Positions 6,161-25,040 of a stretch of DNA of 28,264 bases are shown piece after piece. Position 1 is the first letter of the stretch. The number at the start of each line of letters is the position of its first letter. The position numbers were made by a program, and so were the translations under genes. Origin of the DNA: a virus; IMG/VR virus record IMGVR_UViG_3300009151_000296, positions 1-28,264 of that record. One strand, 5' to 3'. Under the pieces are notes generated by a model. It was given only the letters and a program-made list of their open reading frames with translations. It made no database searches and was not told the origin of the DNA.

Positions 6161-6177
6161 ACAAAAAGGATCCTGAG

Positions 6178-6783: not shown

Positions 6784-6792
6784 GGAACAACA

Positions 6793-7107
6793 ATGTCAAT
6801 AACAACAGTATTAGTAACCAATTCAGTCAGTAACGCATACGTCAGCGGTGGCAATACTGCTATTACTTCACTGGTAATAAACAACTACACAGCCAACACA
6901 GTTACAGCCAACGTGTATGCTGTGCCAGCAGGAGGATCGGCCAACACACAAAATTTGATTCTAACTAATTTAGAACTCACTGGATTTGAAACTTATCAAC
7001 TGTATGTGGCTGCTGAAAAGATACTGTTGGGTAACAATGACACTATACGAGCAGTAGCCAACTCTACCGGCAATCTTAATATTGTAACCAGCTACACCAC
7101 AGTCTAA
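6793..7107 (+). CDS. Small conserved virion-type protein
   Basis: 104 residues with TAAGGAAC ribosome site just upstream. The sequence is a compact beta domain: VTNSVSNAYVSGGNTAITSL, then a central VTANVYAVPAGGSANTQNLI, and a C-terminal KILLGNNDTIRAVANS. The pattern resembles small single-domain phage proteins found beside tail fibre genes in environmental phages. It has no signal peptide or membrane segment. Its stop overlaps the start of the next gene (TAATG), so translation of the two is probably coupled. The function is not known. Confidence 0.62.
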   Translation: MSITTVLVTNSVSNAYVSGGNTAITSLVINNYTANTVTANVYAVPAGGSANTQNLILTNLELTGFETYQLYVAAEKILLGNNDTIRAVANSTGNLNIVTSYTTV

Positions 7108-7505: not shown

Positions 7506-7508
7506 CCG

Positions 7509-7516
7509 GCTAAATA
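7509..7516 (+). promoter_or_regulatory. Late promoter (GCTAAATA)
   Basis: CCGGCTAAATATCC lies directly after the previous stop codon. Expected transcription start is near 7522, leaving a short leader with an AGGGAT ribosome site before ATG 7536. Confidence 0.72.
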
Positions 7517-7535
7517 TCCTATACAGGGATAATCT

Positions 7536-10500
7536 ATGGCAGTCAATTATGTAAAAGGGCAGATTTTATCAAGCATTCTTGAAAGAGACGGCATTGACAT
7601 ATCCATTGCTAACGCCAATGTTGGTATTAATACTGATAGCCCTGTATCTACCCTTGAAGTAGCCGGAGTTCTTACAGTTGGCAATGTGATCATTTCCAAC
7701 GTTGGCAATATCAGTGCTGGCAATGTTAATATTAACAACCTAGCTGAGCCAGTGGCCAATGCAGATGCCACAACTAAATTTTATGTAGATCAAACAGTTG
7801 GCAATGTTGCTGGCAATATATATGGCAATTTAATTCCATTAGGAACACCCACTGACGGCAGTTTAACCACCAACGTGGCCTATCCAGGGTGGACCACTGC
7901 TACATTTGTTACCGACGGTCTAGACGATTTAAATCAAGTGGCTTTGAACATTGCTGGAAACACCTATGTGGGCAATGTTTATATTACGGCCAATGTGACA
8001 TCGGGTCCAAGTCCATTGAGTGTGGCGTTTGTTGGCCACTACATTGGTAATCCTACCAGCTATCTTTGGAATTTTGGTGATGGTACAACTAGCACACTAG
8101 CAAACCCAACACATACCTATAGTAATGTGCTTGGTGGACAATTTACAGTTGTGTATACAGCCTACAACACCAATGGAACCTACAGTGGCAATGCCAATGC
8201 TGGTGCCAAAGGATCAACAGCAACGTCAACTAATACCAATTACATTACTCTGTATACACCTTTGCCAATACCATCGTTTACCACAAGTCCTACTAGTTTA
8301 AATACAGGTAGCAGTGTAACATTGACCAATACTAGTCAGTATGCAACATCATACACAATCAACTACGGTGATGGTAACACAGCAGTTAATCCTGGAAATT
8401 CTTGGACCACAAACAGTCATACCTATAATAATTCAGCCAACACTGACGCTCTTCGCAGTATCACATTAACAGGTACAAATCAAACAGCCGGTAACGCACC
8501 ACCATACAGTGTAACATCTGCTGCAACTGATGTTAAAATATATACGCAACAAAGTCCAGCAATTACTGCTAACGTAACAACAACCATTAACTACTCAGCT
8601 ACCTCTGGTGGAAATGTCCAATTTAGAAACGACACTCCTGGAAGTCCTGGCAACACAGCCAGCTTTGGCGCTCAACAATTATACAACTTCCAATGGGGAG
8701 ATGGCACTGCCAATAGCAATATTAATATTCAAACTGGTCTAGCCGGCAATCCTGGCGCAGCCAATACCTCACATATTTTTGCCCTTACGGCAGGTCAACA
8801 AAATGCAGCCACCACAGTTAACTATGTGGCCAATCTTTGGTTATACACTGGCTACAGCACCAGCCCGTTCAAGTCCAGCAACGTGACCATTTCCATCGAA
8901 CCAGAAGTTAGAGCTGGTTTTATAGGAACCAGTAACACTCAAACAGATGCCACAGGATTCACATCCAATGCACAGGTTGGATATCTATACACCGACTACA
9001 ACGGTCTTGACCGCAGTTTGTTTAACTTTCAAAATCAAACTTCGCCCAACGTGGCCTTTGCTGGAAATGTATTCAACTGGACCTGGGGTGATACCACCAG
9101 CAACACTGGCCTGATAACTTTTGCCAATGTCTCACATTCATATCAGACAGCAGTAGGATCTCCAACTACTGGAACCAAAACAGTTGCACTACAGGCCAAC
9201 GGAACACCTGGAACAATATCACAAAGTAACACACAGACCAAGACAGCATACATCACAATCTTGGCCAATCCCACAGCACCAACAAACCTCAGTGGCTATA
9301 CCAATGTGACCATATCCACAGCCAGTCAAGGCACTAGCCCGCTGTTGGCCGCTGGCGCAAAAGACAACACTGGTGGAAATATTGCGGCCAATGGCACGTC
9401 GGTGCTTCGTGTAGCAACTACCACACCAGTTGCTACCAGCACACAAGTTCAAAATGCCAACACAGCAACTACGGGCACACTGACTGCTTATGTCAATAAC
9501 ACAGCCGCTGGTAATGTGACATTTACCACTGGCGGAAATACAGTAGGCACAGCAGGCGCATTGATTGTGTCAGCTGACAGAGATCTGCACGTGGCCAATG
9601 CCGCTGTGCCCACAGGATTCTACAAGGTATTTTCTGCTACTATCAGCAATACTTTGGCCAGCTTGGGCACCGGTTATAATGATTTCCAACTGAGACACAC
9701 AGTATCCGGCAACACCAATACTGTAGGTATGGTCAAAGACAATTTGAATTCAGCACCTACCTTGGTGACCAGCAACGTGATCATGGCCGGCAATGTCACT
9801 GGAACCTACACTTACATTTCGGGTATTCCATATTACAGTGCTACAGGCAGTCCAAGTGTTACAGTGGCCACTTTAGAATTACAAAACTTTACTGGCCAAA
9901 CTTTCCGTAGTGCTGATCCAATGACATTGAGTGCTGGATCAGCCATAGAAGGCACCGGATCAATCATTGCCGCACAGACCAAAACTTTGGCTCAGATCAA
10001 CGGAACATCTAGTATGCTTACTGGCAGCAATGTCAATGCCAACGTGGGTATCGTATCAAACTATACTATGGGCAATCTCAATGTGTTGATCAATGGAGCC
10101 GTTAATGCTGTGGCCAATGTGGGAGCCAACATATTCAACGTGATTGGTACCAGCACCACAGTTCAGTTACCGACCAAGATACAGGTCAATGCCGCGGCCA
10201 ATACCGGCATCAGTGAAGGCAACATTGCAGTCAGTGTAACATTGGGTTCTGTATACACTGACAACGGTTTACGTATAACTGGGTTTGGAGCTGCTAGCAA
10301 CACACCAGCATTCAGCGGCAGCACGAATTACTATACCGGTAATGTATGGACCGGTGTGCAAACTATTGCAGGAACTCAAGACGCAGTTGACCGGTATGGT
10401 GTAGTTAAACATTATGTAACTGACTTGAGTACCGGATATTTGCCAGTGGGACCTGATCTTGCCACAGGACGCAGCGGACTACAATACTTTACTTTTGCTT

Positions 10501-10913
10501 TCCGCAGAGCCACAATGGCCAACTTTGACATTAGACTTACAACTACTACCGGCGTTGCCGGCATGTGGATTGCGGCCCCAGGTACAACCATTGACACAGG
10601 TGGATTCAGCTCACCTACTCCAGGCTTTCCTGGGCCAACCTCAACACTCAATGGTTGGTTGAGCTGTTCACTACAGTATAACGGATCGGGTGTGCCGGGC
10701 GCAAACATAGCCGGAGGCGGTAACGGAACCAATGGTGTTGCATTGACCGGTGCTGACGTTGTGCCACTCAACTCGGCTATTGCCAATGTGGGCTATACCA
10801 TGACACTAGGTTCGCAAAACTCCAGCAACAGCACAGGCAATAATATTTTGGTTCGTATAGCACTGAGTAGTGGACAAACCATAACTGCACTTTCGATAGG
10901 AGACGCTGCATAA
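7536..10913 (+). CDS. Large PKD-repeat tail fibre/adhesin protein
   Basis: 1125 residues. The N-terminus carries an Asn-rich fibre stem and the tail-fibre motif INNLAEPVANADATTKFYVD (about 68-87). Four PKD-like immunoglobulin-fold domains follow, marked by W/Y-x-F/Y/W-GDG signatures: WNFGDGTTST (about 155-235), INYGDGNTAV (about 243-315), FQWGDGTANS (about 342-420) and WTWGDTTSNT (about 457-552). The middle is Thr/Asn-rich. The C-terminal 160 residues (QYFTFAFRRATMANFDI to TITALSIGDAA) resemble the ends of structural proteins in cyanophage-type T4-like phages and include a Gly-rich loop. PKD domains typically bind sugars or proteins at surfaces. It is most likely a long fibre or host-contact protein. 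It has its own late promoter, and its stop overlaps the next start (TAATG). Confidence 0.8.
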   Translation: MAVNYVKGQILSSILERDGIDISIANANVGINTDSPVSTLEVAGVLTVGNVIISNVGNISAGNVNINNLAEPVANADATTKFYVDQTVGNVAGNIYGNLIPLGTPTDGSLTTNVAYPGWTTATFVTDGLDDLNQVALNIAGNTYVGNVYITANVTSGPSPLSVAFVGHYIGNPTSYLWNFGDGTTSTLANPTHTYSNVLGGQFTVVYTAYNTNGTYSGNANAGAKGSTATSTNTNYITLYTPLPIPSFTTSPTSLNTGSSVTLTNTSQYATSYTINYGDGNTAVNPGNSWTTNSHTYNNSANTDALRSITLTGTNQTAGNAPPYSVTSAATDVKIYTQQSPAITANVTTTINYSATSGGNVQFRNDTPGSPGNTASFGAQQLYNFQWGDGTANSNINIQTGLAGNPGAANTSHIFALTAGQQNAATTVNYVANLWLYTGYSTSPFKSSNVTISIEPEVRAGFIGTSNTQTDATGFTSNAQVGYLYTDYNGLDRSLFNFQNQTSPNVAFAGNVFNWTWGDTTSNTGLITFANVSHSYQTAVGSPTTGTKTVALQANGTPGTISQSNTQTKTAYITILANPTAPTNLSGYTNVTISTASQGTSPLLAAGAKDNTGGNIAANGTSVLRVATTTPVATSTQVQNANTATTGTLTAYVNNTAAGNVTFTTGGNTVGTAGALIVSADRDLHVANAAVPTGFYKVFSATISNTLASLGTGYNDFQLRHTVSGNTNTVGMVKDNLNSAPTLVTSNVIMAGNVTGTYTYISGIPYYSATGSPSVTVATLELQNFTGQTFRSADPMTLSAGSAIEGTGSIIAAQTKTLAQINGTSSMLTGSNVNANVGIVSNYTMGNLNVLINGAVNAVANVGANIFNVIGTSTTVQLPTKIQVNAAANTGISEGNIAVSVTLGSVYTDNGLRITGFGAASNTPAFSGSTNYYTGNVWTGVQTIAGTQDAVDRYGVVKHYVTDLSTGYLPVGPDLATGRSGLQYFTFAFRRATMANFDIRLTTTTGVAGMWIAAPGTTIDTGGFSSPTPGFPGPTSTLNGWLSCSLQYNGSGVPGANIAGGGNGTNGVALTGADVVPLNSAIANVGYTMTLGSQNSSNSTGNNILVRIALSSGQTITALSIGDAA

Positions 10914-11947
10914 TGGCTGCCTCATTTGGTGAAAGTCAAAAACTAGATTATCTTTGGAAGAAAGTTGGTTACGGTGTAGCCAAAACTTCTATACCTCCGC
11001 CGGGAAGTGGCAGTAAAGAAGCTTTTAACGAAAGCATACCCAGTCCCCTGCTGTATCGTGGTGATTTGGTCTGGACCAACAGCGGTGACGTTCCTGCAAC
11101 TCCGCCCAGCAACACCAGCTCCATAGTTCAAGTTTACAAAGATGGTGGCGGTGCTGGATACAGCCCCACAGTGCAATGTACCGAAGACCTAACAGCGCCC
11201 GACAATCAAACTTGGAAAACCAATCTTACCAACTGGATACCCACACAATTTGGTGACAACTATTTGGTAGTGGTTTACGTAGACACCACAGGATCTACTA
11301 CTCCACAAACCACTGGCACTAGACTGTTCCAAACCGGTTCTGGTAATGACGACACCTGGTTCTTTGATTATCAGGCCGGTGTCCTAAACTTCAATGGTGC
11401 TAATATACCATCAGTAATCACCGGCGGCGTCACAGGCAAATCTGTGTTTATTGTGGGCTATAGATATGTAGGACCATTTGGTGTCGCAGGCACAGCTCTA
11501 TTGGGCAACTTGACCATAAGCAATACCACAATCAGCAGCAGTTTGGCCAATGCTACAATTACATTACAGCCTACTGGCACTGGTGTAGTCAGTATCGATA
11601 CCACAACTGGCCTGATATTGCCAGTGGGTAATACTGCCCAACGTCCTAGTCCAGCCGCAACAGGCACCACAAGATTCAACAGCACCACTGGACTGATAGA
11701 AGTTTACAACGGTAATGCTTGGAATTCTACCAGTCAAGCAGTGACCAATCAAACACTCAACGGCAACGGAACTGCCACTGCATTTACATTAAATCGCAGC
11801 ACAACTACAGCGGCTGCATTGGTCATGTTGAATGGTATTACGCAGGTTCCTGATCAATCTTATTCGATGTCGCCCAGTCCCAGTACCAATCTAGTGTTTA
11901 CAGAAGCGCCGGCTACAGGTGACGTAATAGACATCAGATTCTTGTAA
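10913..11947 (+). CDS. Tail fibre protein (cyanophage-type N-terminus)
   Basis: 344 residues. The N-terminus, FGESQKLDYLWKKVGYGVAK, is a recognisable conserved block of virion proteins in environmental T4-like phages, followed by PSPLLYRGDLVW. The middle (about 60-185) is a compact domain with Trp/Tyr-rich strands. Residues about 225-265 hold the LPVGNTAQRPSPAATGTTRF module followed by NSTTGLIEVYNGNAWNS, and residues about 275-344 the NGNGTATAFTLNR... to EAPATGDVIDIRFL module, both shared with other fibres here. Start overlaps the previous stop, with a TAGGAGA ribosome site inside the previous gene. The N-terminal block probably attaches to the virion and the C-terminal modules contact the host or another fibre; this split is inferred. 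Confidence 0.75.
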   Translation: MAASFGESQKLDYLWKKVGYGVAKTSIPPPGSGSKEAFNESIPSPLLYRGDLVWTNSGDVPATPPSNTSSIVQVYKDGGGAGYSPTVQCTEDLTAPDNQTWKTNLTNWIPTQFGDNYLVVVYVDTTGSTTPQTTGTRLFQTGSGNDDTWFFDYQAGVLNFNGANIPSVITGGVTGKSVFIVGYRYVGPFGVAGTALLGNLTISNTTISSSLANATITLQPTGTGVVSIDTTTGLILPVGNTAQRPSPAATGTTRFNSTTGLIEVYNGNAWNSTSQAVTNQTLNGNGTATAFTLNRSTTTAAALVMLNGITQVPDQSYSMSPSPSTNLVFTEAPATGDVIDIRFL

Positions 11948-12166: not shown

Positions 12167-15100
12167 ATGGCCGTAACTAGAATTAATAACAATCAGGTAA
12201 CTGACGCAGTAACAGGCAATACCTTGGTGGGTATCAACGCCGGTACCAAAATACAACCATACTCGATTACTGCTACTCGAATTGCCAACAACCTGACCTA
12301 CGGTAGTGATTTGACCATTACAGGTAACTTGACAGTTTCAGGAACCACAACCAACGTTGACACAGTTAACACACTAATTGCAGATCCGTTGATCACACTG
12401 GCTGACGGACAAGTTACAGGTACTCCTACTTTGGACATTGGTACAATTGGCCTGCGTGGTAGTCAACAATCTGCTGTTTTAGCTTGGCAAGAAAGTGCCA
12501 AAGAATTCGTTACAGCCCTTAGTAGCACCACAGTTAGTAACACAACATTTACACTGTCTGCCTATGCCAACTTGCACAGTGGTAACACAATTCACCAAGG
12601 CACCACTAGTTTAGTTGGTAACTTGATTGGTGCTGTCAACGCTACAGCCACAATCACCGGTGGCAACTTGGCCACTCCGGGCACTGCCAGTGCTACAGGA
12701 ACAATCACAGGTGGCAACTTGGCCACAGGCGGCACTGCCAGTGCTACAGGAACAATCACAGGTGGCAACTTGGCCACAGGCGGCACTGCCAGTGCTACAG
12801 GAACAATCACAGGTGGCAATGTTTTAACTGGTGGACAAGTTAGTGCTACTGGTAACGGTACTTTTGGTAATATTAGTACCGCTGGAACATTTAGTGCTGC
12901 AAGTTTAAGTGCCAGTGGTAACATCACTGGTGGTAATTTATTAACAGGTGGCTATGTAAGTGCCACTGGCAACGGTACTTTTGGTAATATTTCCACTGCT
13001 GGAACTGCAACTGCTGCATCTACAGTGGGTGGTGTAATCACCGGCTCAAGTGCTAGTGTTACAGGTGGCGTTACGGCCGCCAGTGTAGCCGGTGGAGTTA
13101 TCACAGGTACAAGTACCAGTGTAACTGGGTCACAATCAGCGGCCAGCACTGTGGGTGGTGTAATTACAGGTTCAAGTTCCAGTGTCACTGGCACACAGAC
13201 AGCTGCCAGCACAGTGGGTGGTGTAATTACAGGATCAAGTTCCAGTGTCACTGGCACACAAACAGCTGCCAGCACAGTGGGTGGTGTAATCACAGGATCA
13301 AGTGCTAGTGTTACAGGTGGCGTTACGGCCTCTAGCGTAGCAGGTGGCGTTATAACTGGCACAAGTACCAGTGTCACTGGTTCACAAACAGCTGCAAGTA
13401 CCGTGGGTGGTGTGATTACAGGTAGTTCAACTAGTGTAACTGGTTCACAATCAGCCGCCAGTACCGTGGGTGGTGTGATCACTGGATCAAGTGTCAGCGT
13501 CACTGGCACTGCTACTGCCGCTAGCACAGTGGGTGGTGTGATTACAGGTAGTTCAACTAGTGTAACTGGTTCACAATCAGCCGCCAGTACCGTGGGTGGT
13601 GTGATCACTGGATCAAGTGTCAGCGTTAGTGGCAACGTAACTGGTGGTAATGTATTAACAAATTACATCTACAGTGTTACTACCGGCGATACTCTTACAA
13701 TTAATGCTCAAACAATCAGTTTGAATCCTACCGGCAACGTAGGTATGAACAACAGATATATCAACAACTTGGCCGATCCAGTAGCTGATCAAGATGCCGC
13801 AACAAAAGTTTATGTTGATACAGTGGCACAAGGTCTTGATCCTAAGGCTTCTGTGGTATATGCTACAGCAGCCAACATAGCACCATACACATACAACAAC
13901 GGCACCAGTGGTGTAGGCGCAACAATTACATTAACTGCCACAGGCAACTTGACCATTGACGGCAGTATTGTAACTGCTAACTCACGTGTGCTGATCAAGA
14001 ACGAAGTTGGTGCGTTTGTAAACAACACAACACAATCAGCTGCATTCAACGGTATCTATGTGGTAACCACAGCAGGCGCTCCTGGTGTAGCCGCAGTATT
14101 GACTCGTGCCACAGACTTTAACCAACCAGCTGAAATTCCTGGTGCATTTACATTCGTTGAAGCAGGTACTGTCAACTCTGACACTGGATGGGTGTGTACG
14201 ACCAATTCTCCAGTTACTATTGGAACAACTCAAATTATCTTTACCCAGTTCTCTGGTGCAGGATCATACACCGCAGGTACTGCGTTAAGTCTTACTGGAA
14301 CACAGTTTAACGTTCTTTATGATACATCGGGCAACGCCACAATTGGTGTCAACGGTAGTAATCAACTATACATACCAGCTGGTGCTATATTGACCACACC
14401 TAACATTGGTGCAGCCACTGGTACAAGCGTCAGTGTAAGTGGTGCTGTCACAGCTGCCAGCACAGTAGGTGGTGTAATCACAGGATCAAGTGTCAGTGTT
14501 ACTGGCACTGCCACTGCCGCTAGCACAGTGGGTGGTGTTATCACAGGTAGTTCTAGTTCTGTAACCGGCACACAAACAGCCGCAAGCACAGTGGGTGGTG
14601 TAATCACTGGATCAAGTGTCAGCGTTAGTGGCGGTGTAACAGCTTCTAGTGTAGCAGGCGGTGTAATTACAGGGACAAGTACCAGTGTCACTGGTTCACA
14701 AACTGCCGCTAGCACAGTGGGTGGGGTTATAACTGGTACATCAACATCAGTAACTGGTTCACAAACTGCAGCCTCTACAGTGGGTGGTGTGATTACAGGT
14801 TCAAGTTCTAGTGTCACTGGTACACAGACAGCTGCTAGCACAGTGGGTGGTGTCATAACTGGTACATCAACATCGGTAACTGGTTCACAGACAGCTGCTA
14901 GCACAGTGGGTGGTGTTATAACAGGTTCAAGTTCAAGTGTAACTGGTACACAGACAGCTGCTAGCACAGTGGGTGGTGTTATCACAGGTAGTTCTAGTTC
15001 TGTAACTGGCACACAATCAGCTGCTAGCACAGTGGGTGGTGTAATTACAGGATCAAGTTCTAGTGTCACTGGCACACAAACAGCTGCATCAACAGTGGGT

Positions 15101-17845
15101 GGTGTCATAACAGGAAGTTCGTCTAGTGTTACTGGTAACGTAGACGGCGGCAATATCAACACCGGTGGACAAGTAAGTGCTACTGCCACAATCACAGGTG
15201 GCAATTTGGCCACAGGTGGTACAGTAAGTGCTACTGGCAACATCACAGGCGGAAACGTTTTAACAAGTGGTTCTGGTGGTGCAATTAGTGGCAGTGGTAA
15301 CATCACAGGCGGAAACATCCTGACCAGCGGCGTAGTAAGTGCAACCAGCGGTGTCACTGGTGGCAATATTGTTATTGCTGGCAACACTGTCAACATGCTG
15401 AACCCAGGTGGCACAATACAAGTCAACAGTGGCAACGCCAACACAAACTTCAGCGTAAGTGGTACAGCTGCCAATGTGTTCTTTGTCAATGCAACCACCA
15501 ACACAGCCAGCTTTGGATCAAGCGCACAGACTGTCAATGCCGTTGTAGCGTTCAACAGTACCAATTCAATCTTGTTACCAGCTGGTACGCAAGGTCAGCG
15601 TCCGGCCACAGGCGTTACTGGTATGTTGCGCTTCAACAGCACAACCAACAGTATAGAAATATACAACAACAGTGCTTGGATAGGTGTTGGCTCCACAGTG
15701 TTTACAGTTATCACTGATCAACAGTTTGCTGGTGATGGTGCTTGCACAGTGTTTACCTTGTCCAATACTTCAACCACAGCTGCAACAATTGTCAGTATCA
15801 ACGGTGTGTTGCAGATACCAACTTCGGCTTACAGTGTAAGTGGAACCACATTGACATTTACAGAAGCACCGGCCACAGCTGACTTGATCGACGTTCGTGC
15901 ATTGACCACAACAACAACCTTGTTGAGTTTGACCAACGTAAGTGCCAATGCTTCAGTTGGAGTCAGTGACACCACAAACATTGTTACTATAACAGGTACA
16001 GCAAACGTTGTGGGTGATTTGGTTGTGTCAGGCAATGCTACCATTCTTGGTAACGTGGCCACCAACTCAATTATAAATGGCATCAGTTCTGTAACGATTC
16101 CAACTCCGGGCGGCAATGTGGTCATCGACGTGGGCAACACCAACGATATAGCCACCTTCACAACCAATTCGATGGAAATTCATGGTAATATTTTGCCACA
16201 AAGCAACGTTACCTACAGTTTGGGCAGCACAACACAACGCTTTAAAGATCTATGGTTAAGTGGCAATACAATTTACTTGGGTAATGCACTGATCAGTGCC
16301 AATGCCACAGCCATTGTGATGACCAATCCAGCCGGTGGACAAACTGTGTTAGCTGGCGCAACTACAACAAGCAGCGTGGCTGGTAACATCACTGGTGGCA
16401 ACATCCTAACTGGTGGTATTGTAAGTGCATTTGGTAACATTATCACTGGTACCAATACCAGCACTCCGGGCTACATTGGTATAGGTACAACTACTCCTGA
16501 TTGTGAACTTAATATTTTAGGCAACCCACAGACTGTAAATTATCCTGTAACAGGTAACAGCACCACACTGGGAACAGAAATACACATAGTTGGTGCGGAT
16601 AGTTCACAAACTCGTATTGTTCAAGATGCATTTGGTACAGGTGCATACGTGGCGTTTACTGGACGTGCTGCTAGAAATACTGCGGCCAGTCCATCACAGA
16701 CCCAGAGCGGAGACTATATTGCTCAGTTTACTGGACGCGGATTCAGTAGTGGAAGTTTACAATTTGGTAATGCATCAACTGGTTTATTAGCCATAACAGC
16801 TGCAGAAGCGTTCACTGATACCAGTCGTGCTACCAACGTGCAGATATTGACCACAGCATCGGGAGCAATTAGCCCTACTGCTGTAGCCACATTCAGCAGT
16901 GCCGCAGGATTAAGCGTAGCTGGCAACATTACTGGAAGTTACATTCTTGGTAACGGTAGTCAACTGAGTGGCATTGATGCCACACAGATAATCAGTGGCA
17001 CATCAAACTTAAAAGTTACAACTTCCGGTGGTAATATTGCAGCCAGTGTTGGTGGAACCAGTAACGTGGCTGTTTGGGCATCAACAGGTGTTTACATTAC
17101 AGGATTGGCAAGTGTCACCGGCACAGTAACTGCCGCAAGTGTAGTGGGCGGTGTGATTACCGGTAGTTCAACCAGTGTTAGTGGTACTGTAACAGCTGCA
17201 TCGGTAGTGGGCGGTGTGATTACCGGTAGTTCAACCAGTGTTAGTGGTACTGTAACAGCTGCATCGGTAGTGGGTGGTGTGATTACAGGATCAAGTTCAA
17301 GTGTCACTGGCACAGTTACTGGTGGCAACATTGTAACAGCTGGTCAACTTACAGTCAACTCAGGTGCCAATGTCACAGCAATCGTCAACGGTGCAACAAC
17401 AGGTGTAGGTAATATTGGCTCAAGCACAGTGGGATTCAACACTGTATTTGCCAAAGCAACCACAGCACAATACGCTGACTTGGCAGAGAAATACACAGCC
17501 GACGCTGAGTATGCTCCAGGCACAGTGGTGGTGTTTGGCGGTACAGCCGAAGTCACAGTCAACGCTGTAGATGCAGATCGCAAGGTAGCTGGTGTAGTGT
17601 CTACTGACCCTGGTTTCTTAATGAATGAAGGATTACACAGCGAGTTTGCAGTGGCTGTTGCGTTAACCGGACGTGTGCCAACCTTGGTTGTTGGACCAGT
17701 CCGCAAGGGGGACTTGATGGTGGCCGCAGGACTGGGCCGTGCCAGAGCCGAAGCTGATCCTCGAGTTGGATCAGTAATTGGTAAAGCACTGGAAGACTTT
17801 GATGGTGCAGAAGGCACAATAGAAATTGTTGTAGGACGTTTCTAA
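12167..17845 (+). CDS. Giant repeat-rich tail fibre protein
   Basis: 1892 residues. In order: N-terminal fibre module with NLTVSGTTTNVDTVNTLIAD (about 50-69) and TIGLRGSQQSAVLAWQESAK; four 17-residue repeats (160-227); ten 21-residue repeats (280-489); INNLADPVADQDAATKVYVD (about 532-551) with a conserved ligand-like module (about 557-706); eleven more 21-residue repeats (760-990); an LPAGTQGQRPATG module (about 1140-1175) and an NGVLQIPTSAYSVSG module (about 1185-1245); a LWLSGNTIYLGNALI stem; a SQLSGIDATQIISGTSNLK module; three 21-residue repeats (1653-1715); and a C-terminal domain (about 1759-1892) with YADLAEKYTADAEYAPG and GRVPTLVVGPVRKGDLM, which is also at the end of the 21030 gene. 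It is likely the main long fibre. The repeats probably form an extended beta shaft, which is inferred. GGAG ribosome site at 12157. Confidence 0.85.
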   Translation: MAVTRINNNQVTDAVTGNTLVGINAGTKIQPYSITATRIANNLTYGSDLTITGNLTVSGTTTNVDTVNTLIADPLITLADGQVTGTPTLDIGTIGLRGSQQSAVLAWQESAKEFVTALSSTTVSNTTFTLSAYANLHSGNTIHQGTTSLVGNLIGAVNATATITGGNLATPGTASATGTITGGNLATGGTASATGTITGGNLATGGTASATGTITGGNVLTGGQVSATGNGTFGNISTAGTFSAASLSASGNITGGNLLTGGYVSATGNGTFGNISTAGTATAASTVGGVITGSSASVTGGVTAASVAGGVITGTSTSVTGSQSAASTVGGVITGSSSSVTGTQTAASTVGGVITGSSSSVTGTQTAASTVGGVITGSSASVTGGVTASSVAGGVITGTSTSVTGSQTAASTVGGVITGSSTSVTGSQSAASTVGGVITGSSVSVTGTATAASTVGGVITGSSTSVTGSQSAASTVGGVITGSSVSVSGNVTGGNVLTNYIYSVTTGDTLTINAQTISLNPTGNVGMNNRYINNLADPVADQDAATKVYVDTVAQGLDPKASVVYATAANIAPYTYNNGTSGVGATITLTATGNLTIDGSIVTANSRVLIKNEVGAFVNNTTQSAAFNGIYVVTTAGAPGVAAVLTRATDFNQPAEIPGAFTFVEAGTVNSDTGWVCTTNSPVTIGTTQIIFTQFSGAGSYTAGTALSLTGTQFNVLYDTSGNATIGVNGSNQLYIPAGAILTTPNIGAATGTSVSVSGAVTAASTVGGVITGSSVSVTGTATAASTVGGVITGSSSSVTGTQTAASTVGGVITGSSVSVSGGVTASSVAGGVITGTSTSVTGSQTAASTVGGVITGTSTSVTGSQTAASTVGGVITGSSSSVTGTQTAASTVGGVITGTSTSVTGSQTAASTVGGVITGSSSSVTGTQTAASTVGGVITGSSSSVTGTQSAASTVGGVITGSSSSVTGTQTAASTVGGVITGSSSSVTGNVDGGNINTGGQVSATATITGGNLATGGTVSATGNITGGNVLTSGSGGAISGSGNITGGNILTSGVVSATSGVTGGNIVIAGNTVNMLNPGGTIQVNSGNANTNFSVSGTAANVFFVNATTNTASFGSSAQTVNAVVAFNSTNSILLPAGTQGQRPATGVTGMLRFNSTTNSIEIYNNSAWIGVGSTVFTVITDQQFAGDGACTVFTLSNTSTTAATIVSINGVLQIPTSAYSVSGTTLTFTEAPATADLIDVRALTTTTTLLSLTNVSANASVGVSDTTNIVTITGTANVVGDLVVSGNATILGNVATNSIINGISSVTIPTPGGNVVIDVGNTNDIATFTTNSMEIHGNILPQSNVTYSLGSTTQRFKDLWLSGNTIYLGNALISANATAIVMTNPAGGQTVLAGATTTSSVAGNITGGNILTGGIVSAFGNIITGTNTSTPGYIGIGTTTPDCELNILGNPQTVNYPVTGNSTTLGTEIHIVGADSSQTRIVQDAFGTGAYVAFTGRAARNTAASPSQTQSGDYIAQFTGRGFSSGSLQFGNASTGLLAITAAEAFTDTSRATNVQILTTASGAISPTAVATFSSAAGLSVAGNITGSYILGNGSQLSGIDATQIISGTSNLKVTTSGGNIAASVGGTSNVAVWASTGVYITGLASVTGTVTAASVVGGVITGSSTSVSGTVTAASVVGGVITGSSTSVSGTVTAASVVGGVITGSSSSVTGTVTGGNIVTAGQLTVNSGANVTAIVNGATTGVGNIGSSTVGFNTVFAKATTAQYADLAEKYTADAEYAPGTVVVFGGTAEVTVNAVDADRKVAGVVSTDPGFLMNEGLHSEFAVAVALTGRVPTLVVGPVRKGDLMVAAGLGRARAEADPRVGSVIGKALEDFDGAEGTIEIVVGRF
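12644..12847 (+). repeat. 51-bp tandem repeats, 4 copies, in frame
   Basis: Four 51-bp units start at 12644, 12695, 12746 and 12797. Each encodes a 17-residue unit of the type TGTITGGNLATGGTASA. Copies 2 and 3 are identical at DNA level; copy 1 differs at a few bases and copy 4 diverges in its second half. This suggests recent tandem duplication inside the fibre gene. Confidence 0.9.
13004..13633 (+). repeat. 63-bp tandem repeat block 1, 10 copies
   Basis: Ten in-frame 63-bp units encode 21-residue repeats of the form TQTAASTVGGVITGSSSSVTG, with variants at positions 1-2 (TA, GV, SQ, TQ) and at the Ser/Thr position near the end. Third codon positions differ between many copies while the protein is kept. 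A 98-bp stretch at 13403-13500 recurs without change at 13529-13626. Confidence 0.93.
14444..15136 (+). repeat. 63-bp tandem repeat block 2, 11 copies
   Basis: Eleven in-frame 63-bp units of the same 21-residue family as block 1, separated from it by about 810 bp of non-repeat fibre sequence. The unit order (AV, TA, TQ, GV, SQ, SQ, TQ, SQ, TQ, TQ, TQ) differs from block 1. Confidence 0.93.
17123..17311 (+). repeat. 63-bp tandem repeat block 3, 3 copies
   Basis: Three units of the form TVTAASVVGGVITGSSTSVSG, with Val-Val instead of Thr-Val. The 63 bp at 17141-17203 and 17204-17266 are identical, which points to a very recent duplication. Confidence 0.92.
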
Positions 17846-17864
17846 ACAGGTAAAACTGTACCGG

Positions 17865-17889
17865 ATAGGGTCTTCGGACCCTATTTTTA
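17865..17889 (+). terminator. Rho-independent terminator after giant fibre
   Basis: ATAGGGTC pairs with GACCCTAT around a TTCG tetraloop and is followed by a T-run. It lies 20 bases after the fibre stop codon and just before a late promoter variant. Confidence 0.92.
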
Positions 17890-17892
17890 TTG

Positions 17893-17900
17893 TATAAGTA
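17893..17900 (+). promoter_or_regulatory. Late promoter variant (TATAAGTA)
   Basis: TATAAGTA matches the T4 late consensus TATAAATA except for one G. Expected start near 17906, then an AAAAGGA ribosome site and ATG 17917. It follows the terminator directly. Confidence 0.6.
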
Positions 17901-17916
17901 AACAAAAGGATATCAA

Positions 17917-18246
17917 ATGTCATTACCAAAATCAGTAACAATTGGCCCAGGATGGTCAATTGGCCCAGGATGGACCATGGGTGTAGGTAATTACGCTGGT
18001 CAAACAACGCCAACTAGCGTTCAAAACGTAGCTGGCTCTGATAGTACCACTGGATTCTTTTATGTTGGTGGTGCTGGTTGGAGCACAATATCTGGAACGC
18101 CAAATTTAAGCAATGTTGCTGCTGGTTGGTTAGTGGTTCAACTTCCTGGAGCCACGGTGGTCAGCGTTGATTCAGGAGCACAAACAATCACCATTACAGG
18201 TGGAACTTTTATTAGTGGATCATTTTACACATTTACAGGAGTATAA
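17917..18246 (+). CDS. Small virion-type protein with GPGWSIGPGW N-terminus
   Basis: 109 residues. The N-terminus contains VTIGPGWSIGPGWTMGVG (about residues 7-24), in which GPGW is repeated. The rest is a Gly/Thr/Ser-rich beta domain ending TISGSFYTFTGV-like (GGTFISGSFYTFTGV). No signal peptide, cysteine or membrane segment. AAAAGGA lies upstream of the ATG. The next gene starts 3 bases after the stop and has the same N-terminal motif, so the two are probably made from one mRNA and share an attachment partner. The role is unknown; a small fibre or tip protein is plausible. Confidence 0.65.
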   Translation: MSLPKSVTIGPGWSIGPGWTMGVGNYAGQTTPTSVQNVAGSDSTTGFFYVGGAGWSTISGTPNLSNVAAGWLVVQLPGATVVSVDSGAQTITITGGTFISGSFYTFTGV

Positions 18247-18249
18247 TTA

Positions 18250-18993
18250 ATGGTAGCACCAGTAACAGTGAGTGTTGGACCTGGGTGGTCAATTGGCCCA
18301 GGATGGAGCCTTGGATATGCTCCGGTACCACCTGCACTGATTCTCAATCTTGACGCAGCCAACTACTCAGCTGTTCCTACGAATGGCAGCACAATAGCGG
18401 GTACAGGCAGCTACACCATAACAACATTGAACCCGGGTGGTAGTATGTCGTGGTCTGCTGCTAACGGTGGAATATTTCGTAAGACCGCAGATACTGACAC
18501 AGACTTTTTGACATTTGGACCAGATTACTCAGCCACATCAGAAGACTATACAGTAATGATGGTCTATAGATCGCAAACTGGAGCATTGGGTAGATTGTTA
18601 AATGCCAACAGTGCCGCTCCAGACTGGTTAGCGGGCTTGTGGGGCAGCGGTGGCGGCGTCCAGGACGTTTTCTACAATGGTAACTTTGTGGGTGGCACTA
18701 CGCCACAGAACAATGCGTGGCAATTCATATGGGCCACATACAATGGCAACGCAGGATCACCACTATCGCAAAACTATGTTGCCAACTCAACTGTTCCAAC
18801 AACTACCTTTGGTACTGATACTAGCAACGGTGGATTTGCAGGCTTGAGATTGTTTGGTAGATATTCTGACGCTACTACCAGCACAGAAGTACCAACTGCT
18901 GATGTAGGCTTGGTCAAAGTATGGAACGGTGTGTTGCCGCTGTCAGAAATACAAACACAATGGAGTGCTTATCGGACAAGATTTGGATATTAA
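18250..18993 (+). CDS. LamG/concanavalin-like lectin-type adhesin
   Basis: 247 residues. The N-terminus VTVSVGPGWSIGPGWSLGYA copies that of the gene before. From about residue 28, ALILNLDAANYSAVPTNGST opens a domain that looks like the laminin-G/concanavalin jelly-roll found in phage and bacterial surface proteins: FRKTADTDTDFLTFG, DYTVMMVYRS, WQFIWATYNGNAGS and the ending DVGLVKVWNGVLPLSEIQTQ then WSAYRTRFGY, typical for the last strands of that fold. Such domains often bind glycans. A GGAG ribosome site stands 9 bases before ATG 18250, inside the end of the preceding gene. It probably serves as a receptor-binding or decoration protein; the ligand is unknown. A terminator follows at 19016. 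Confidence 0.72.
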   Translation: MVAPVTVSVGPGWSIGPGWSLGYAPVPPALILNLDAANYSAVPTNGSTIAGTGSYTITTLNPGGSMSWSAANGGIFRKTADTDTDFLTFGPDYSATSEDYTVMMVYRSQTGALGRLLNANSAAPDWLAGLWGSGGGVQDVFYNGNFVGGTTPQNNAWQFIWATYNGNAGSPLSQNYVANSTVPTTTFGTDTSNGGFAGLRLFGRYSDATTSTEVPTADVGLVKVWNGVLPLSEIQTQWSAYRTRFGY

Positions 18994-19015
18994 ACTACTA
19001 TTTCCACTGTAAAAT

Positions 19016-19041
19016 AGGACTCCGCGCAGTCCTGTTTTTTT
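19016..19041 (+). terminator. Rho-independent terminator
   Basis: AGGACT (19016-19021) pairs with AGTCCT (19028-19033) around a six-base loop, followed by G and seven T. It ends the 17917-18993 unit. The next late promoter begins two bases after the T-run. Confidence 0.88.
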
Positions 19042-19042
19042 G

Positions 19043-19050
19043 GCTAAATA
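19043..19050 (+). promoter_or_regulatory. Late promoter (GCTAAATA)
   Basis: TGGCTAAATATTGC immediately follows the terminator. Expected start near 19056, 16 bases before ATG 19072. Confidence 0.7.
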
Positions 19051-19071
19051 TTGCATACTAATGGAACTACA

Positions 19072-20784
19072 ATGGGATTAACCAAACCACGTGCCGCGCA
19101 GATATTTAACTTAGACTACAAACAGGCTACACGAGTAGTAGCCACGGTCAGCGTCTCATTGAGTGGCGGCGCCCCTAGTAGTGTAGATGGTGTTAGTCTC
19201 TCCACCGGCGACCGGGTGCTAGTTACAGCACAAACTACCGGCAGTCAAAACGGATTATACTACGTAATTACTGTAGGATCTGGATCAAACGGTACCTGGG
19301 CTAGAACCAGTGACGGCAACGACAACGGCGAAATTGAAGCTGGAATGATTGTGATGGTCACTGAAGGTGTGATTTATGCTGACACACAGTGGAAACTGAT
19401 CACAGATGATCCGATTACCATTGGAACTACATCACTATCTTTTACTCAAAACTATAGTGCAAATTCAATATCTGGCGGCTCAAGTAATGTAACAGTCTAT
19501 TCAAACGCCAACGTCGTTATCAGCAGTGCCGGCACGGCCAACGTATTAACTGTAAGCTCAACTGGCACCGTTACTACCGGAACAGCATCAGTTACAGGAA
19601 ACATTACTGGTGGCAATATTTCGGCTTCCAAGTATATAGGTACCGCAGTAAGTGTCACTGGTAATGTGACAGCAGCATCAACTGTTGGTGGAGTGATTAC
19701 TGGCACAAGCGCCAGTGTCACAGCTAATGTCACTGCTGGTAACATGTTAACTGGTGGATTAATTAGTGCTACCGGTAATGTTACCAGCGGTAACCTATTA
19801 ACAGGTGGATTGATCAGTGCTACAGGCAATGTCACTGGCAATTACTTTTTAGGCAACGTATTTTTTGCCAGTGGTATTACTGCCAGTAAAATTTACAACG
19901 GAACCAGCGAAGCCAATGTTGGTACTAGTGGCGGCAATGCCAACATCAGCATAGGCGGAACAAGTAATGTAGTGGTGTTTGCCTCAACTGGAGAATATGT
20001 CTCTGGTCTATTAAGTGTAACCGGTAATATCACCGGCGGTAATAGTTCAGCCACCAACTACACAGGAACCAACGTCAGTGTTACAGGAACTGCAACTGCT
20101 GCTAGCACAGTGGGTGGTGTAATTACAGGTTCAAGTGTCAGCGTCAGTGGCTCACAAACAGCCGCATCAACTGTGGGTGGTGTTATTACCGGAACTTCTG
20201 CTTCGGTTACAGGCACTGTAACTGCTGCCAGTGTAGTAGGTGGTGTGATTACAGGTAGTTCAACCAGCGTTAGTGGCACACAAACTGCGGCTTCTACCGT
20301 GGGCGGAGTTATTACGGGTAGTTCGGTATCAGTAAATGGTAACGTGACTGGCGGCAACGTCTTGACTGGCGGTGTAGTAAGCACAACAGGCAACGTCACT
20401 GGGAATTATTTTTTAGGCAATGTATTCTACGCCAACGGCATCACTGCTAGTAAAATTTACAATGGAACCAGTGAGGTCAATGTTGGAACCAGCGGTGGCA
20501 ATGCCAACATCAGCATAGGTGGAACCAGCAATGTGGCTGTGTTTTCCACCGCTGGTGCGTATTTTAACGGAAACCTTGTTCCGGCTGTATCAAACACATA
20601 CAGTCTAGGAAGTTCAACCAACCGCTGGGCCAATTTATGGTTAACCGGCAATACTATTTATTTGGGCAACAGCACTATCACTAGTGCTGCCAGTGGCGAT
20701 GTCATTATCGACTCTTCGGGTAGTTTTGCTGTGCCGGTAGGTTCAACCGCCCAGCGCAGTGCAGTTCAAGGAGCCATACGTTAA
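19072..20784 (+). CDS. Tail fibre protein, interrupted by frameshift near its end
   Basis: 570 residues up to the stop. The N-terminal module (about 10-135: NLDYKQATRVVATV, GDRVLVTAQTTGSQNGLYYV, DDPITIGTTSLSFTQ) is a diverged copy of residues 557-706 of the giant fibre. Then come TGGN-type repeats, one isolated and four tandem 21-residue repeats, and two copies of a module with ITASKIYNGTSE and GGNANISIGGTSNV (about 263-310 and 448-495). The end has LGSSTNRWANLWLTGNTIYL and VPVGSTAQRSAVQGAIR, then TAA. That last motif normally goes on with an aromatic residue and NTTVG; this continuation is in the +1 frame (see 20783-21004). So the gene is probably frameshifted, or the sequence has an error here. 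ATG 19072 is chosen over a TTG at 19051, which overlaps the promoter. Confidence 0.75.
   Translation: MGLTKPRAAQIFNLDYKQATRVVATVSVSLSGGAPSSVDGVSLSTGDRVLVTAQTTGSQNGLYYVITVGSGSNGTWARTSDGNDNGEIEAGMIVMVTEGVIYADTQWKLITDDPITIGTTSLSFTQNYSANSISGGSSNVTVYSNANVVISSAGTANVLTVSSTGTVTTGTASVTGNITGGNISASKYIGTAVSVTGNVTAASTVGGVITGTSASVTANVTAGNMLTGGLISATGNVTSGNLLTGGLISATGNVTGNYFLGNVFFASGITASKIYNGTSEANVGTSGGNANISIGGTSNVVVFASTGEYVSGLLSVTGNITGGNSSATNYTGTNVSVTGTATAASTVGGVITGSSVSVSGSQTAASTVGGVITGTSASVTGTVTAASVVGGVITGSSTSVSGTQTAASTVGGVITGSSVSVNGNVTGGNVLTGGVVSTTGNVTGNYFLGNVFYANGITASKIYNGTSEVNVGTSGGNANISIGGTSNVAVFSTAGAYFNGNLVPAVSNTYSLGSSTNRWANLWLTGNTIYLGNSTITSAASGDVIIDSSGSFAVPVGSTAQRSAVQGAIR
20089..20340 (+). repeat. 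63-bp tandem repeats, 4 copies, in second fibre gene
   Basis: Four in-frame 63-bp units of the same 21-residue family as in the 12167 gene (TATAASTVGGVITGSSVSVSG and relatives). A further single unit lies at about 19665-19728. The family is thus shared between two fibre genes. Confidence 0.9.
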
Positions 20785-21029: not shown

Positions 21030-22562
21030 ATGCCAACAGTAGTCCAATTTAGACGCGGAACAACCGCACAAAACAACAACTTTCTTGGAGCCAACGGCGA
21101 AATTTCTGTTGACACCACTCTTAATGTGTTGCGTGTTGCTGATGCTGTTACATTAGGTGGATTTGCAATGGTTGGGCAAAATTGTGTTCAGACCATTGCT
21201 AATAAAACATATACTGGAACATTGCTCAGTGTAACCGGCAACGTCACCGGTAACTACATTTTTGGCAACGGTAGTCAATTGAGTGGCATTGATGCTACTA
21301 GTATTCAAAGTGGTACATCAAATGTAAAAGTTACCACTGCTGGTGGTAATGTTGCAGTCAGTGTGGGTGGAACCAGCAACGTGGTTGTTTGGGCCTCTAC
21401 CGGCACATATACCACTGGCATATCAAGTGTGACTGGCAACATCACAGGCGGTAATTTATTAACCAGTGGATTGGTCAGTGCCACTGGCAATATCACAGGC
21501 GGCAACATTTTAGGTGGTGCCAATGTCAATGCAACTACACACACAGGAACTACGGTAAGTGTAACAGGGAATATCACCGGCGGAAATGTAATTGCATCTA
21601 CTGGATTAACTGCCGGTACGTTATCATTGTCCGGCAATACAATTACATCGACTGACAATACAATCACAATCGATCCTGCTAGTTCTGGACCAACTGGACA
21701 CGTTATTATTCAAGGTAACTTGAGTGTAACAGGCAATGTAACATATATCAACTCTAACAATGTCACCACAAATGATTTAACTATTAATATGGCCAATAAC
21801 GCAGCAACCGCCGCGGCAGCCAACGGTGGTGGTATTGAAGTTGGTCCTGCCGGCACACCCTATGCTACTATTACTTACAATAGTACCAGTAACACCTGGG
21901 CGGTAAGCAACGGTGCCAATGTAAGTGGAGCTGTAAGTGTCAGCGGCAACATCACTGGCGGTAATATCAGCACCGGTGGAGTAATGGTTATTACTGGTGC
22001 AAGTACCGCCGCAAGTTACAGCGCAACTGGCAACGTTACAGGCGGTAACTTGTCGGCTGGCACCGGCACCATCACCGGTGGAAATATTGTTAACTCAAAT
22101 GCCAATGGTGTAGGCAATATTGGTAGTGCAACAACGTATTTCAATACAGTATTTGCCAAAGCAACTTCGGCACAATATGCCGACTTGGCAGAAATGTATG
22201 TAGCTGACACTGCTTATGCAGCCGGAACGGTAGTAGAGTTTGGCGGCAACAATGAGATAACAGTCGCAACCACAACCCATTCCACACAGGTGGCTGGCAT
22301 TATATCTACACAACCAGCATACCTAATGAACTCCGCACAAGCCGGTGAGCATCCACTTGAAGTGGCTTTGGTCGGGCGAGTTCCTTGCTCAGTGGTTGGC
22401 ACCGTACGCAAAGGCGATCGTTTAGTGTCTAGTGACCTGCCTGGTGTTGCCCAAGCACTTGATATCAATTTATACCAACCTGGATGCATCGTTGGTAAAG
22501 CCTTAGAAGAATACAATTCAACCGAACCTGGAGTGATAGAAGTAGCAGTAGGAAGGTCATAA
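21030..22562 (+). CDS. Tail fibre protein with Mtd-type N-terminus
   Basis: 510 residues. The N-terminus (VVQFRRGTTAQNNNFLGANG, EISVDTTLNVLRVAD, GGF) matches the small N-terminal domain of phage receptor-binding proteins of the Mtd_N type. Residues about 80-130 carry GNGSQLSGIDATSIQSGTSN and VGGTSNVVVWASTGTY, a module also in the giant fibre. TGGN-type repeats and a SLSGNTITSTDNTITID stem follow. The C-terminal domain (about 370-510: YFNTVFAKATSAQYADLAEM, GRVPCSVVGTVRKGDRLV, IVGKALEEYN) is a paralogue of the end of the giant fibre. Similar domains end many phage fibres and may help folding or trimerisation; that is inference. Its stop overlaps the start of the next gene (TAATG), so the two are coupled. 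Confidence 0.8.
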   Translation: MPTVVQFRRGTTAQNNNFLGANGEISVDTTLNVLRVADAVTLGGFAMVGQNCVQTIANKTYTGTLLSVTGNVTGNYIFGNGSQLSGIDATSIQSGTSNVKVTTAGGNVAVSVGGTSNVVVWASTGTYTTGISSVTGNITGGNLLTSGLVSATGNITGGNILGGANVNATTHTGTTVSVTGNITGGNVIASTGLTAGTLSLSGNTITSTDNTITIDPASSGPTGHVIIQGNLSVTGNVTYINSNNVTTNDLTINMANNAATAAAANGGGIEVGPAGTPYATITYNSTSNTWAVSNGANVSGAVSVSGNITGGNISTGGVMVITGASTAASYSATGNVTGGNLSAGTGTITGGNIVNSNANGVGNIGSATTYFNTVFAKATSAQYADLAEMYVADTAYAAGTVVEFGGNNEITVATTTHSTQVAGIISTQPAYLMNSAQAGEHPLEVALVGRVPCSVVGTVRKGDRLVSSDLPGVAQALDINLYQPGCIVGKALEEYNSTEPGVIEVAVGRS

Positions 22563-23224: not shown

Positions 23225-23649
23225 ACGCTGGATTCAATAGTCGAAATTTTATTTTGCACAGCTTCGAAATTCACAGTTGACCATAGGCCTGGATGCATGG
23301 GTCTAGGCCATGTGCCCGAATCAATCCATGCATATCCTATGTGTTCGTAATTTAATATGGGTCGAAATTCTTGATTCACTATGCAAAAAAATGTATGATA
23401 TTCAAATCCTGCATCTACGGTGGTGAACTTTTCCAACGGCATCATACGCACATAGTCAGGCATTGATCCAATTTCTTCTTCACACTCTCTGACAATAGCA
23501 GTCATTAAGGTTTCGCCGAATTCCACACGCCCACCCGGCAATCCCCATGACCCTGGATGCTTTGAATCATTACGCATGAGATACAGGTAGCGGCGAGTAT
23601 TGACCGCATAAAACCAAACGCCCACTGCTTTTATAATACTAGACTCCAT
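23209..23649 (-). CDS. Nudix hydrolase
   Basis: 146 residues with a complete Nudix box at residues 39-61: GGRVEFGETLMTAIVRECEE followed by EIG, that is G-x5-E-x7-R-E-x2-E-E-x-G. Members hydrolyse a nucleoside diphosphate linked to another group, using metal ions held by the box glutamates. N-terminal strands (KAVGVWFYAV, RYLYLMRND) and a C-terminal HPGLWSTVNF fit the fold; the look is close to NTP/NDP-sugar type Nudix enzymes, but the substrate cannot be told. A strong GGAGG ribosome site (23653-23657, minus strand) lies in the end of gp15, which overlaps the start by 19 bases. So it is the last gene of the gp14-gp15 unit. Confidence 0.9.
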   Translation of the reverse strand: MESSIIKAVGVWFYAVNTRRYLYLMRNDSKHPGSWGLPGGRVEFGETLMTAIVRECEEEIGSMPDYVRMMPLEKFTTVDAGFEYHTFFCIVNQEFRPILNYEHIGYAWIDSGTWPRPMHPGLWSTVNFEAVQNKISTIESSVYTSQ

Positions 23650-25040
23650 GTGCCTCCAGGATACAGGCCTTGATATGATTTAATCCAAGTATTTCCAGTC
23701 CATTCATACTGTATTTCTGTTGTGATATTTGTGACATACTGTATATTATCTGGACTTGAGTCACTGTCAAAAGAAATCTGCCACCTTGCGCCATCATATT
23801 CCACAATGTCGTTGGCTTGGGCAACCAGGGGTTGTCCATTGACTCCGGCCCAGGCCTCAGCATATCCTTCATTGAATGTTCCGGTAGCTTCGGTAAACAA
23901 ATAGCGTTGTCCTGCCGCCGGTGCTGCTAGTCCAGCACCAGGCCCACTGCGTAGTGGATCAATAACAGACAAAACTGGTTCCAATGTATTGTTAGGAGTT
24001 GATCCTGCGTCTACTGTAAACAACAAAAATCTGTCATCAGTAGGATCATAACTGACATAACCTACAACTTCGGTTCCGTCATCTTGTTCTAATTTAATGT
24101 AGCTGATGCCGTCTCTCAACACCCCGTATGCTCCAACAACATTGTGCCACAGCAAATTACTTTCTGGACTACTGGCTGGATTCAAACTGGCATTGGATTG
24201 GTCAATCACTTGTTGTTCACGCAAGGCCTGTAATCTACCAACTGTTCCCGGACTTCCGCCAATTAACAATGCTTGATATCCGTATGGTGTAATTACTTGG
24301 CGTGTGCCCAACAACAGATCATTGTCAAGGATAGCATTGCTGGCATCACCGTTGGCATCAAACACACTCATGACAATGCGCTCAACCACGCCCAGTTTCT
24401 TGACCTTGGCCGGACTTGACAGCCAAATTGGTATACTAAAGGTAAGAGTGGCAATGTCTATAGGGTTTTCAGTTCCAACCGGAATAGTTCGATTACTCCA
24501 TTTGGTTGATTCAAGATTACAAACAGTAAGACTGGTCCAGTCAATAAAATTATCAGTGCTTTGTATTTCCAAGCTGGGATTGAACAGCACTAGGATTTGT
24601 TCCAAGATCTGCATCTTTTGATTGGTATTTGATGTCCATATATCTAGGGCAATGGTCAACTTGTATGGTACCGGCATCAACCGCTCAATAGTAAATGCAT
24701 TGCCTTGTGTGGCTTCGTATGTGTCAGTGGCTTCATCATAAGCACGTTGTCGAACCTGCATGTTGCTTACAAAATTGGGTTCCTGGATCCTTGGACGATC
24801 GTAGTCTAATCCAGTTACATAAAACGTCATCAACGGTGTTGACGGCATATCGTTGGCTGAGTTTTGTTGTATGATAGTTTGTGCTTGGCGGCTTGCATCA
24901 CCATAACGAACTGGCACACGAACTAAGGTATCGTTTTTGCCAGACTCGTTACGACCGTACTCAACACTGAAGTTGCTGAAGATTCTAGCAAACTGTAGTA
25001 AGAAGCGACGTATTTGTTGATCGTAAAAAAACTGTGCCAT
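23631..25040 (-). CDS. 15: Tail completion / sheath stabiliser gp15
   Basis: 469 residues. The N-terminal half matches T4 gp15 in pattern: FFYDQQIRRFLLQFARIFSN, VEYGRNESGKNDTLVRVPVR, then MPSTPLMTFYVTGLDYDRPR, PVPYKLTIALDIWTSNTNQK and MQILEQILVLFNPSLEIQ. In T4, gp15 caps the contractile tail as a ring and joins it to the head. The protein is far longer than T4 gp15 (272 residues): residues about 230-469 are an extra region with WHNVVGAYGVLRDGISYIKL and EYDGARWQISFDSDS, seemingly beta-rich and Gly/Asp-rich. The ATG follows the gp14 stop without a gap. It forms one unit with gp14 and the Nudix gene. Confidence 0.87.
   Translation of the reverse strand: MAQFFYDQQIRRFLLQFARIFSNFSVEYGRNESGKNDTLVRVPVRYGDASRQAQTIIQQNSANDMPSTPLMTFYVTGLDYDRPRIQEPNFVSNMQVRQRAYDEATDTYEATQGNAFTIERLMPVPYKLTIALDIWTSNTNQKMQILEQILVLFNPSLEIQSTDNFIDWTSLTVCNLESTKWSNRTIPVGTENPIDIATLTFSIPIWLSSPAKVKKLGVVERIVMSVFDANGDASNAILDNDLLLGTRQVITPYGYQALLIGGSPGTVGRLQALREQQVIDQSNASLNPASSPESNLLWHNVVGAYGVLRDGISYIKLEQDDGTEVVGYVSYDPTDDRFLLFTVDAGSTPNNTLEPVLSVIDPLRSGPGAGLAAPAAGQRYLFTEATGTFNEGYAEAWAGVNGQPLVAQANDIVEYDGARWQISFDSDSSPDNIQYVTNITTEIQYEWTGNTWIKSYQGLYPGGTWSLVL

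What the first reader, a model, noticed from the sequence alone, without database searches (positions are those of the whole stretch)
13004..20340. A 21-residue (63-bp) fibre repeat spread in four blocks across two genes
The unit TxTAASTVGGVITGSSxSVTG occurs in blocks of 10, 11 and 3 in the 1892-aa fibre and 4 (plus one isolated) in the 570-aa fibre. Most units differ at silent positions while the protein stays near constant, which argues for selection on the repeat protein plus repeated shuffling. I do not know this repeat as a named fibre family. It may form a length-adjustable beta shaft, with copy number setting fibre length.
Basis: partly seen in the sequence, partly recalled or inferred. 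Interest (0 to 1): 0.68.

Follow-up and report, generated by a model that had tools for sequence, protein, structure and literature searches.

The report
Variable-length repeat shaft in phage fibres
A giant T4-like phage builds its tail fibres from conserved globular pieces joined by rods of a 21-amino-acid repeat, and related phages keep the same pieces but carry very different numbers of repeats, which suggests rods that change length as the viruses evolve.

Summary
Twenty-nine 21-aa units lie at the stated places (10+11+3 in the 1892-aa fibre, 1+4 in the next). All 29 differ in DNA, with only 23 protein versions. The window is 99.99% identical to part of a 197-kb T4-like phage contig whose capsid protein is closest (about 66%) to PA5oct-like jumbo phages.
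The unit is not private to this phage: it occurs in 95 stretches of IMG/VR, 21 residues apart in 566 of 622 neighbouring cores. It has no Pfam, PHROGs or solved-structure match and no real match in 84,980 bacterial and archaeal genomes.
In orthologous fibre genes four globular modules stay in order (up to 96% identical) while the rods between them change: 24 units here, then 20, 17, 12, 4, 1 or 0, with 17-aa units filling in. Exact 63/126/189-bp duplications point to in-frame recombination. Near-identical contigs have the same arrays, so fast switching is not supported.
Best reading: a modular fibre whose rod length evolves by gain and loss of interchangeable 11/16/17/21-aa units. Beta fold, trimer state and effect on infection remain inferred (repeat model pLDDT 61; full F2 model failed at 39).

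The parts
12167..17845 (+). F1: 1892-aa modular tail fibre
12167..12646 (+). F1 N-terminal module (aa 1-160), 92% identical in L101, 89% in L102
12653..12973 (+). 17-aa (51-bp) type repeat units ITGGN...SATG, five copies
13004..13633 (+). block A: ten 21-aa units (first rod)
13403..13626 (+). 98-bp exact duplication, offset 126 bp (13403-13500 repeated at 13529-13626)
13679..14431 (+). central globular module (aa 505-755); aa 534-700 match PDB 9efk orf22; 96% identical in L102
14444..15136 (+). block B: eleven 21-aa units (second rod)
15140..15391 (+). 17-aa type units after block B
15449..16366 (+). third module (aa 1095-1400), 81-86% identical in L101, L102, L114, L117
17123..17311 (+). block C: three 21-aa units with a 71-bp exact duplication at 63-bp offset
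17369..17842 (+). C-terminal module (YADLAE type), shared with F3 and with PA5oct-like, Phosso and Atu_ph07 virion proteins
19072..20784 (+). F2: 570-aa second fibre; N-terminal part related to phage head-decoration/fibre proteins
19663..19725 (+). isolated 21-aa unit in F2
20089..20340 (+). block D: four 21-aa units in F2
21030..22562 (+). F3: 510-aa fibre with Mtd_N N-terminus, 17-aa type units, no 21-aa unit, same C-terminal module as F1
10913..11947 (+). 344-aa gene just upstream; anchor used to find orthologous F1 genes

Best explanation
F1 and F2 are tail fibres (host-attachment proteins) of a jumbo T4-like phage. They are beads on rods: conserved globular modules joined by shaft segments made of interchangeable short units. 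The 21-aa unit is the commonest here; 17-aa, 16-aa and 11-aa units with similar edges (S-V/A-T/S-G followed by T/N-x-T/S) also occur. Rod length evolves by in-frame unequal recombination or copying of one to three units within a block, and of longer pieces between blocks, while purifying selection keeps the unit's protein sequence. The rod thus sets the distance between the virion and the binding modules. Shown: units, fixed spacing, conserved modules, changing copy number, exact duplications, confinement to the fibre locus. Inferred: beta fold, trimer state, effect of length on infection.
For: Fibre identity: matches to phage tail-fibre and decoration proteins and to solved protein 9efk orf22. 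Family-wide spacing: 566 of 622 neighbouring cores are 21 apart across 110 ORFs; main exceptions 32 (=21+11), 37 (=21+16), 25. Copy number in F1 orthologues: 10+11+3 (window, L099, L100), 10+5+2 (L101), 5+7 (L102), 5+3+3+2+5+2 (L108), 4 (L117), 1 (L103, L114), 0 (L104, L124); ORF lengths about 1130-2160 aa; module order N-central-third-C kept where alignments are strong. N-to-central spacer: 344 aa in the window, 252 in L102, 282 in L117, 107 in L104, 472 in L124. Recombination: exact repeats at +63, +126, +189 bp and between blocks (125 bp at +1863 in L029; 109 bp at +624 in L108). Repeats lie only in the fibre locus of the 197-kb relative. All-strand prediction for the units.
Against: The six-unit model has pLDDT 61 and no significant structural neighbour in PDB or BFVD; the F2 model failed (pLDDT 39). 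No trimer could be modelled. Near-identical contigs show no copy-number change. No data link copy number to measured fibre length or host range. Metagenome assemblies may compress arrays, and several contigs end inside one.
Confidence: 0.7

Rival explanations
1. The repeat is a fast contingency locus: copy number slips often within one phage population, switching fibre reach or presentation from virion to virion.
For: Tandem 63-bp units with exact in-phase duplications, up to 122 bp at +63 in relatives; copy number differs between relatives.
Against: Contigs at 99% identity or more have the same arrays: window/L099/L100, L106/L108, L064/L067, L104/L012, L156/L023, L152/L035. Units within an array average only about 71% DNA identity, far from the identical units that slippage favours. 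Assemblies may hide minor variants.
Confidence: 0.1
2. The units bind the host themselves: a Ser/Thr-rich multivalent adhesin or a glycosylated surface, in which copy number sets avidity rather than length.
For: The unit is rich in Ser, Thr and Gly and sits in attachment proteins.
Against: The core is strongly conserved across phages of very different genome size, unlike a host-facing surface under an arms race; 17-aa units replace it in orthologues, as expected for a spacer.
Confidence: 0.12
3. The repeats act mainly as DNA: sequence islands that promote recombination and module swapping between fibre genes, with no special role of the protein rod.
For: Inter-block exact copies in L029, L018 and L108; modules differ in age between relatives, for example the central module is 96% identical in L102 but 69% in L101.
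Against: DNA units are diverged at silent sites while the protein is kept (pS 0.573, pN 0.201); selection clearly acts on the protein.
Confidence: 0.06

Closest known systems
T4 long tail fibres (gp34, gp37), trimeric beta-structured shaft with globular bulges (PMC5537660, abstract; shaft detail from own knowledge)
   Same: Long rods interrupted by globular modules; host attachment role; T4-like virion.
   Different: No sequence match found; T4 shafts are not built from arrays of a near-identical 21-aa unit (own knowledge); trimer state here is not tested.
Triple-stranded beta-helix of T4 gp5 (PMC4576200, abstract)
   Same: Gly/Val-rich short units; strands predicted here.
   Different: gp5 has a much shorter repeat (own knowledge); no sequence match here.
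Adenovirus-type triple beta-spiral shaft (own knowledge)
   Same: Copy number of a short unit sets shaft length.
   Different: Roughly 15-residue unit with a different motif; no relationship found.
Collagen-like GXY repeats in phage fibres (PMC3368898; length variation from own knowledge)
   Same: Low-complexity rods in prophage fibre proteins.
   Different: No GXY pattern here; strand, not collagen helix, predicted.
Structural protein orf22 in PDB 9efk
   Same: Homologous to the F1 central module (about aa 534-700), E 6.8e-20 for the module alone.
   Different: The match does not extend usefully into the 21-aa blocks.

Membership tests
Phage tail fibre / virion attachment protein | Sequence homology to known fibre or virion modules and position in the virion gene cluster | tested here: met
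   gp23 at 1710-2906 and sheath at 23631-25040 in the same window
T4-like jumbo phage (PA5oct, GAP32, CBB group) | Gp23-type capsid protein closest to that group | tested here: met
   about 66% identity over 99% to PA5oct-like phages and Vibrio phage 2.275.O, 62% to GAP32/CBB; related contigs of 182-344 kb
Any curated repeat family (Pfam, PHROGs) | Profile match of the 21-aa blocks | tested here: not met
Shaft of a solved structure (PDB) | Sequence or fold match of the repeat to a solved chain | tested here: not met
   the fold search rests on a low-confidence model
Trimeric beta-helical shaft | Homotrimer with interwoven strands | not testable with these tools
   only monomers can be modelled; strands predicted at low confidence
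Diversity-generating retroelement target (Mtd-like) | Reverse transcriptase gene in the phage | tested here: not met
   no PF00078 match in five large relatives, although F3 carries an Mtd_N domain
Contingency (phase-variable) locus | Copy-number variation within a population | tested here: inconclusive
   no difference between contigs at 99% identity or more; reads not available, so minor variants cannot be excluded

The most novel reading that the evidence does not exclude
An undescribed construction kit for phage shafts: 11-, 16-, 17- and 21-aa units with shared edges stack interchangeably, so aquatic jumbo phages can lengthen or shorten rods between fixed binding modules by in-frame recombination, tuning reach to the host surface.
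Probability: 0.35. Interest if true: 0.6.

Novelty: new variant of a known kind. Interest (0 to 1): 0.45.

Why it matters
It gives a natural series (0, 1, 4, 12, 17, 20, 24 units in orthologous fibres with largely conserved modules) in which to ask whether shaft length matters for phage infection. It would also put a name to a widespread fibre repeat that current family libraries miss.

Tried and rejected
BLAST of the repeat against cultured phages gave nothing, but low-complexity masking makes this weak. Fibre regions of Phosso, Deifobo, Mosig, DC31 and S-CAM9 hold no such arrays. Two single pattern hits in bacterial genomes do not encode repeat arrays: one lies in a hydrophobic 146-aa ORF, the other in a 140-aa ORF with no array. 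A diversity-generating retroelement was considered because F3 has Mtd_N; no reverse transcriptase in five relatives. Weak phmmer hits to designed armadillo, antibody and ice-binding proteins (E 0.02 or worse) were treated as compositional. The paper on a new aquatic jumbo lineage (PMC12619734) does not mention this repeat in the passages found. Foldseek neighbours were all non-significant. Full-length F2 folding failed. A text search for the repeat strings found no paper. Covariation between unit positions 17-2', 1-8 and 2-7 hints at strand contacts, but shared ancestry of units is not controlled for.

Full report
Observation. Every unit has a different DNA sequence; there are 23 protein versions. 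The reversed control pattern gives no match, so chance is excluded. The same genes also carry 17-aa units (51 bp).

Host genome. The window carries a Gp23 major capsid protein and a tail sheath. It is 99.99% identical over 21 kb to a 197-kb IMG/VR contig (L100) and over 17.7 kb to another contig, L099. Gp23 is closest, at 62-66%, to PA5oct-like Pseudomonas phages, Vibrio phage 2.275.O, GAP32 and CBB. So this is a jumbo-type T4-like phage. That it comes from freshwater is a guess from memory of the IMG sample numbers and was not tested; the host is unknown. In the 197-kb relative all 29 repeat cores lie in this fibre locus and none elsewhere.

Spread. A degenerate pattern for the unit finds 95 stretches in IMG/VR. 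In 84,980 bacterial and archaeal genomes it finds only two single matches, neither in a repeat array. Over 110 ORFs (overlapping loci of one contig are counted more than once), 566 of 622 neighbouring cores are exactly 21 residues apart. The main exceptions resolve into extra small units: 32 = 21 + an 11-aa unit (AVSGASASVSG), 37 = 21 + a 16-aa unit (NVTSSSFLGTTVSVTG). Spacings of 25 involve a degenerate SGSGGAISG core next to 17-aa units. Neither Pfam nor PHROGs has a family for the blocks, and no solved structure matches convincingly.

Orthologue comparison, the key result. F1 follows the 344-aa gene in this window and in its relatives. Aligning F1 piece by piece shows four modules: N-terminal, central, third and C-terminal. 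In L101 and L102 they keep 69-96% identity. The rods between them do not stay the same: 10+11+3 units here; 10+5+2 in L101; 5+7 in L102; 5+3+3+2+5+2 in L108; 4 in L117; 1 in L103 and L114; none in L104 or L124. These counts exclude a degenerate GGAISG core that the wider pattern includes. Where 21-aa units are missing, 17-aa units fill the rod, up to 43 in L103. The N-to-central spacer ranges from 107 to about 670 aa. In distant relatives (L103, L127) some module matches are weak, and the order there is less certain.

How the arrays change. The window has a 98-bp exact copy at +126 bp (units 7-8 and 9-10 of block A) and a 71-bp exact copy at +63 bp in block C; relatives show exact copies at +63, +126 and +189 bp and between blocks. 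DNA identity between units is above a random-codon null built from the units' own codon usage (0.690 vs 0.649+-0.005; nearest neighbour 0.865 vs 0.771+-0.007). So units share ancestry and are copied around, yet silent sites have diverged (pS 0.573) while the protein is held (pN 0.201; serine codon switches inflate pN). Units within a block are slightly more alike than between blocks (permutation P 0.0085). One-to-one orthology of units with L101 and L102 is mostly lost, which fits turnover.

Speed of change. Contigs at 99% identity or more that span arrays align without gaps, so copy number is the same. Differences appear at about 90% identity. This argues against a fast switch. It is limited by assembly, which may hide minor variants, and the independence of the matching contigs is not established.

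Structure. Six units with 19 in-register rows give an all-strand monomer with turns near G9-G10 and G21-T1, pLDDT 61, pTM 0.60. Foldseek finds no significant neighbour. F2 gives pLDDT 39 and should not be used. The central module matches PDB 9efk orf22 (E 6.8e-20), deposited as 18 chains; a trimeric arrangement there is a guess from the chain number. F3 begins with Mtd_N; Mtd is a trimer by own knowledge. The trimer state of F1 is therefore inference.

Interpretation. The best-supported reading is a modular fibre with rods of variable length, evolved by gain and loss of in-frame units. A spacer role explains the conserved core, the swap with 17-aa units and the conserved modules. The effect on infection is untested. 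The repeat itself appears to be undescribed in the libraries searched, but the kind of thing, a repeat-built phage shaft, is known; hence a new variant of a known kind with moderate interest.

Noticed in passing
window 21030-22562: F3 has an Mtd_N N-terminus, 17-aa type units and the same C-terminal module as F1, but no 21-aa unit; no reverse transcriptase was found in five large relatives.
   Followed up: partly
window 7536-10913: 1125-aa protein in the virion cluster with a PKD domain (PF18911) and a PHROG of unknown function.
   Followed up: no
L018 (228-kb contig), 239-10014: Two adjacent fibre ORFs with 58 cores, alternating 21-aa and 11-aa units.
   Followed up: partly
L103 11205-17699: Orthologous fibre of 2165 aa in which about 43 units of the 17-aa type replace the 21-aa unit.
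   Followed up: partly
window 17917-18993: Two small ORFs between F1 and F2 both start with a VTxSVGPGWSIGPGW-like motif (SVTIGPGWSIGPGW / TVSVGPGWSIGPGW), suggesting a shared tag.
   Followed up: no
21-aa units, positions 17-2', 1-8, 2-7: Pairs of variable positions covary across 288 neighbouring unit pairs, possibly strand contacts; ancestry not controlled.
   Followed up: partly
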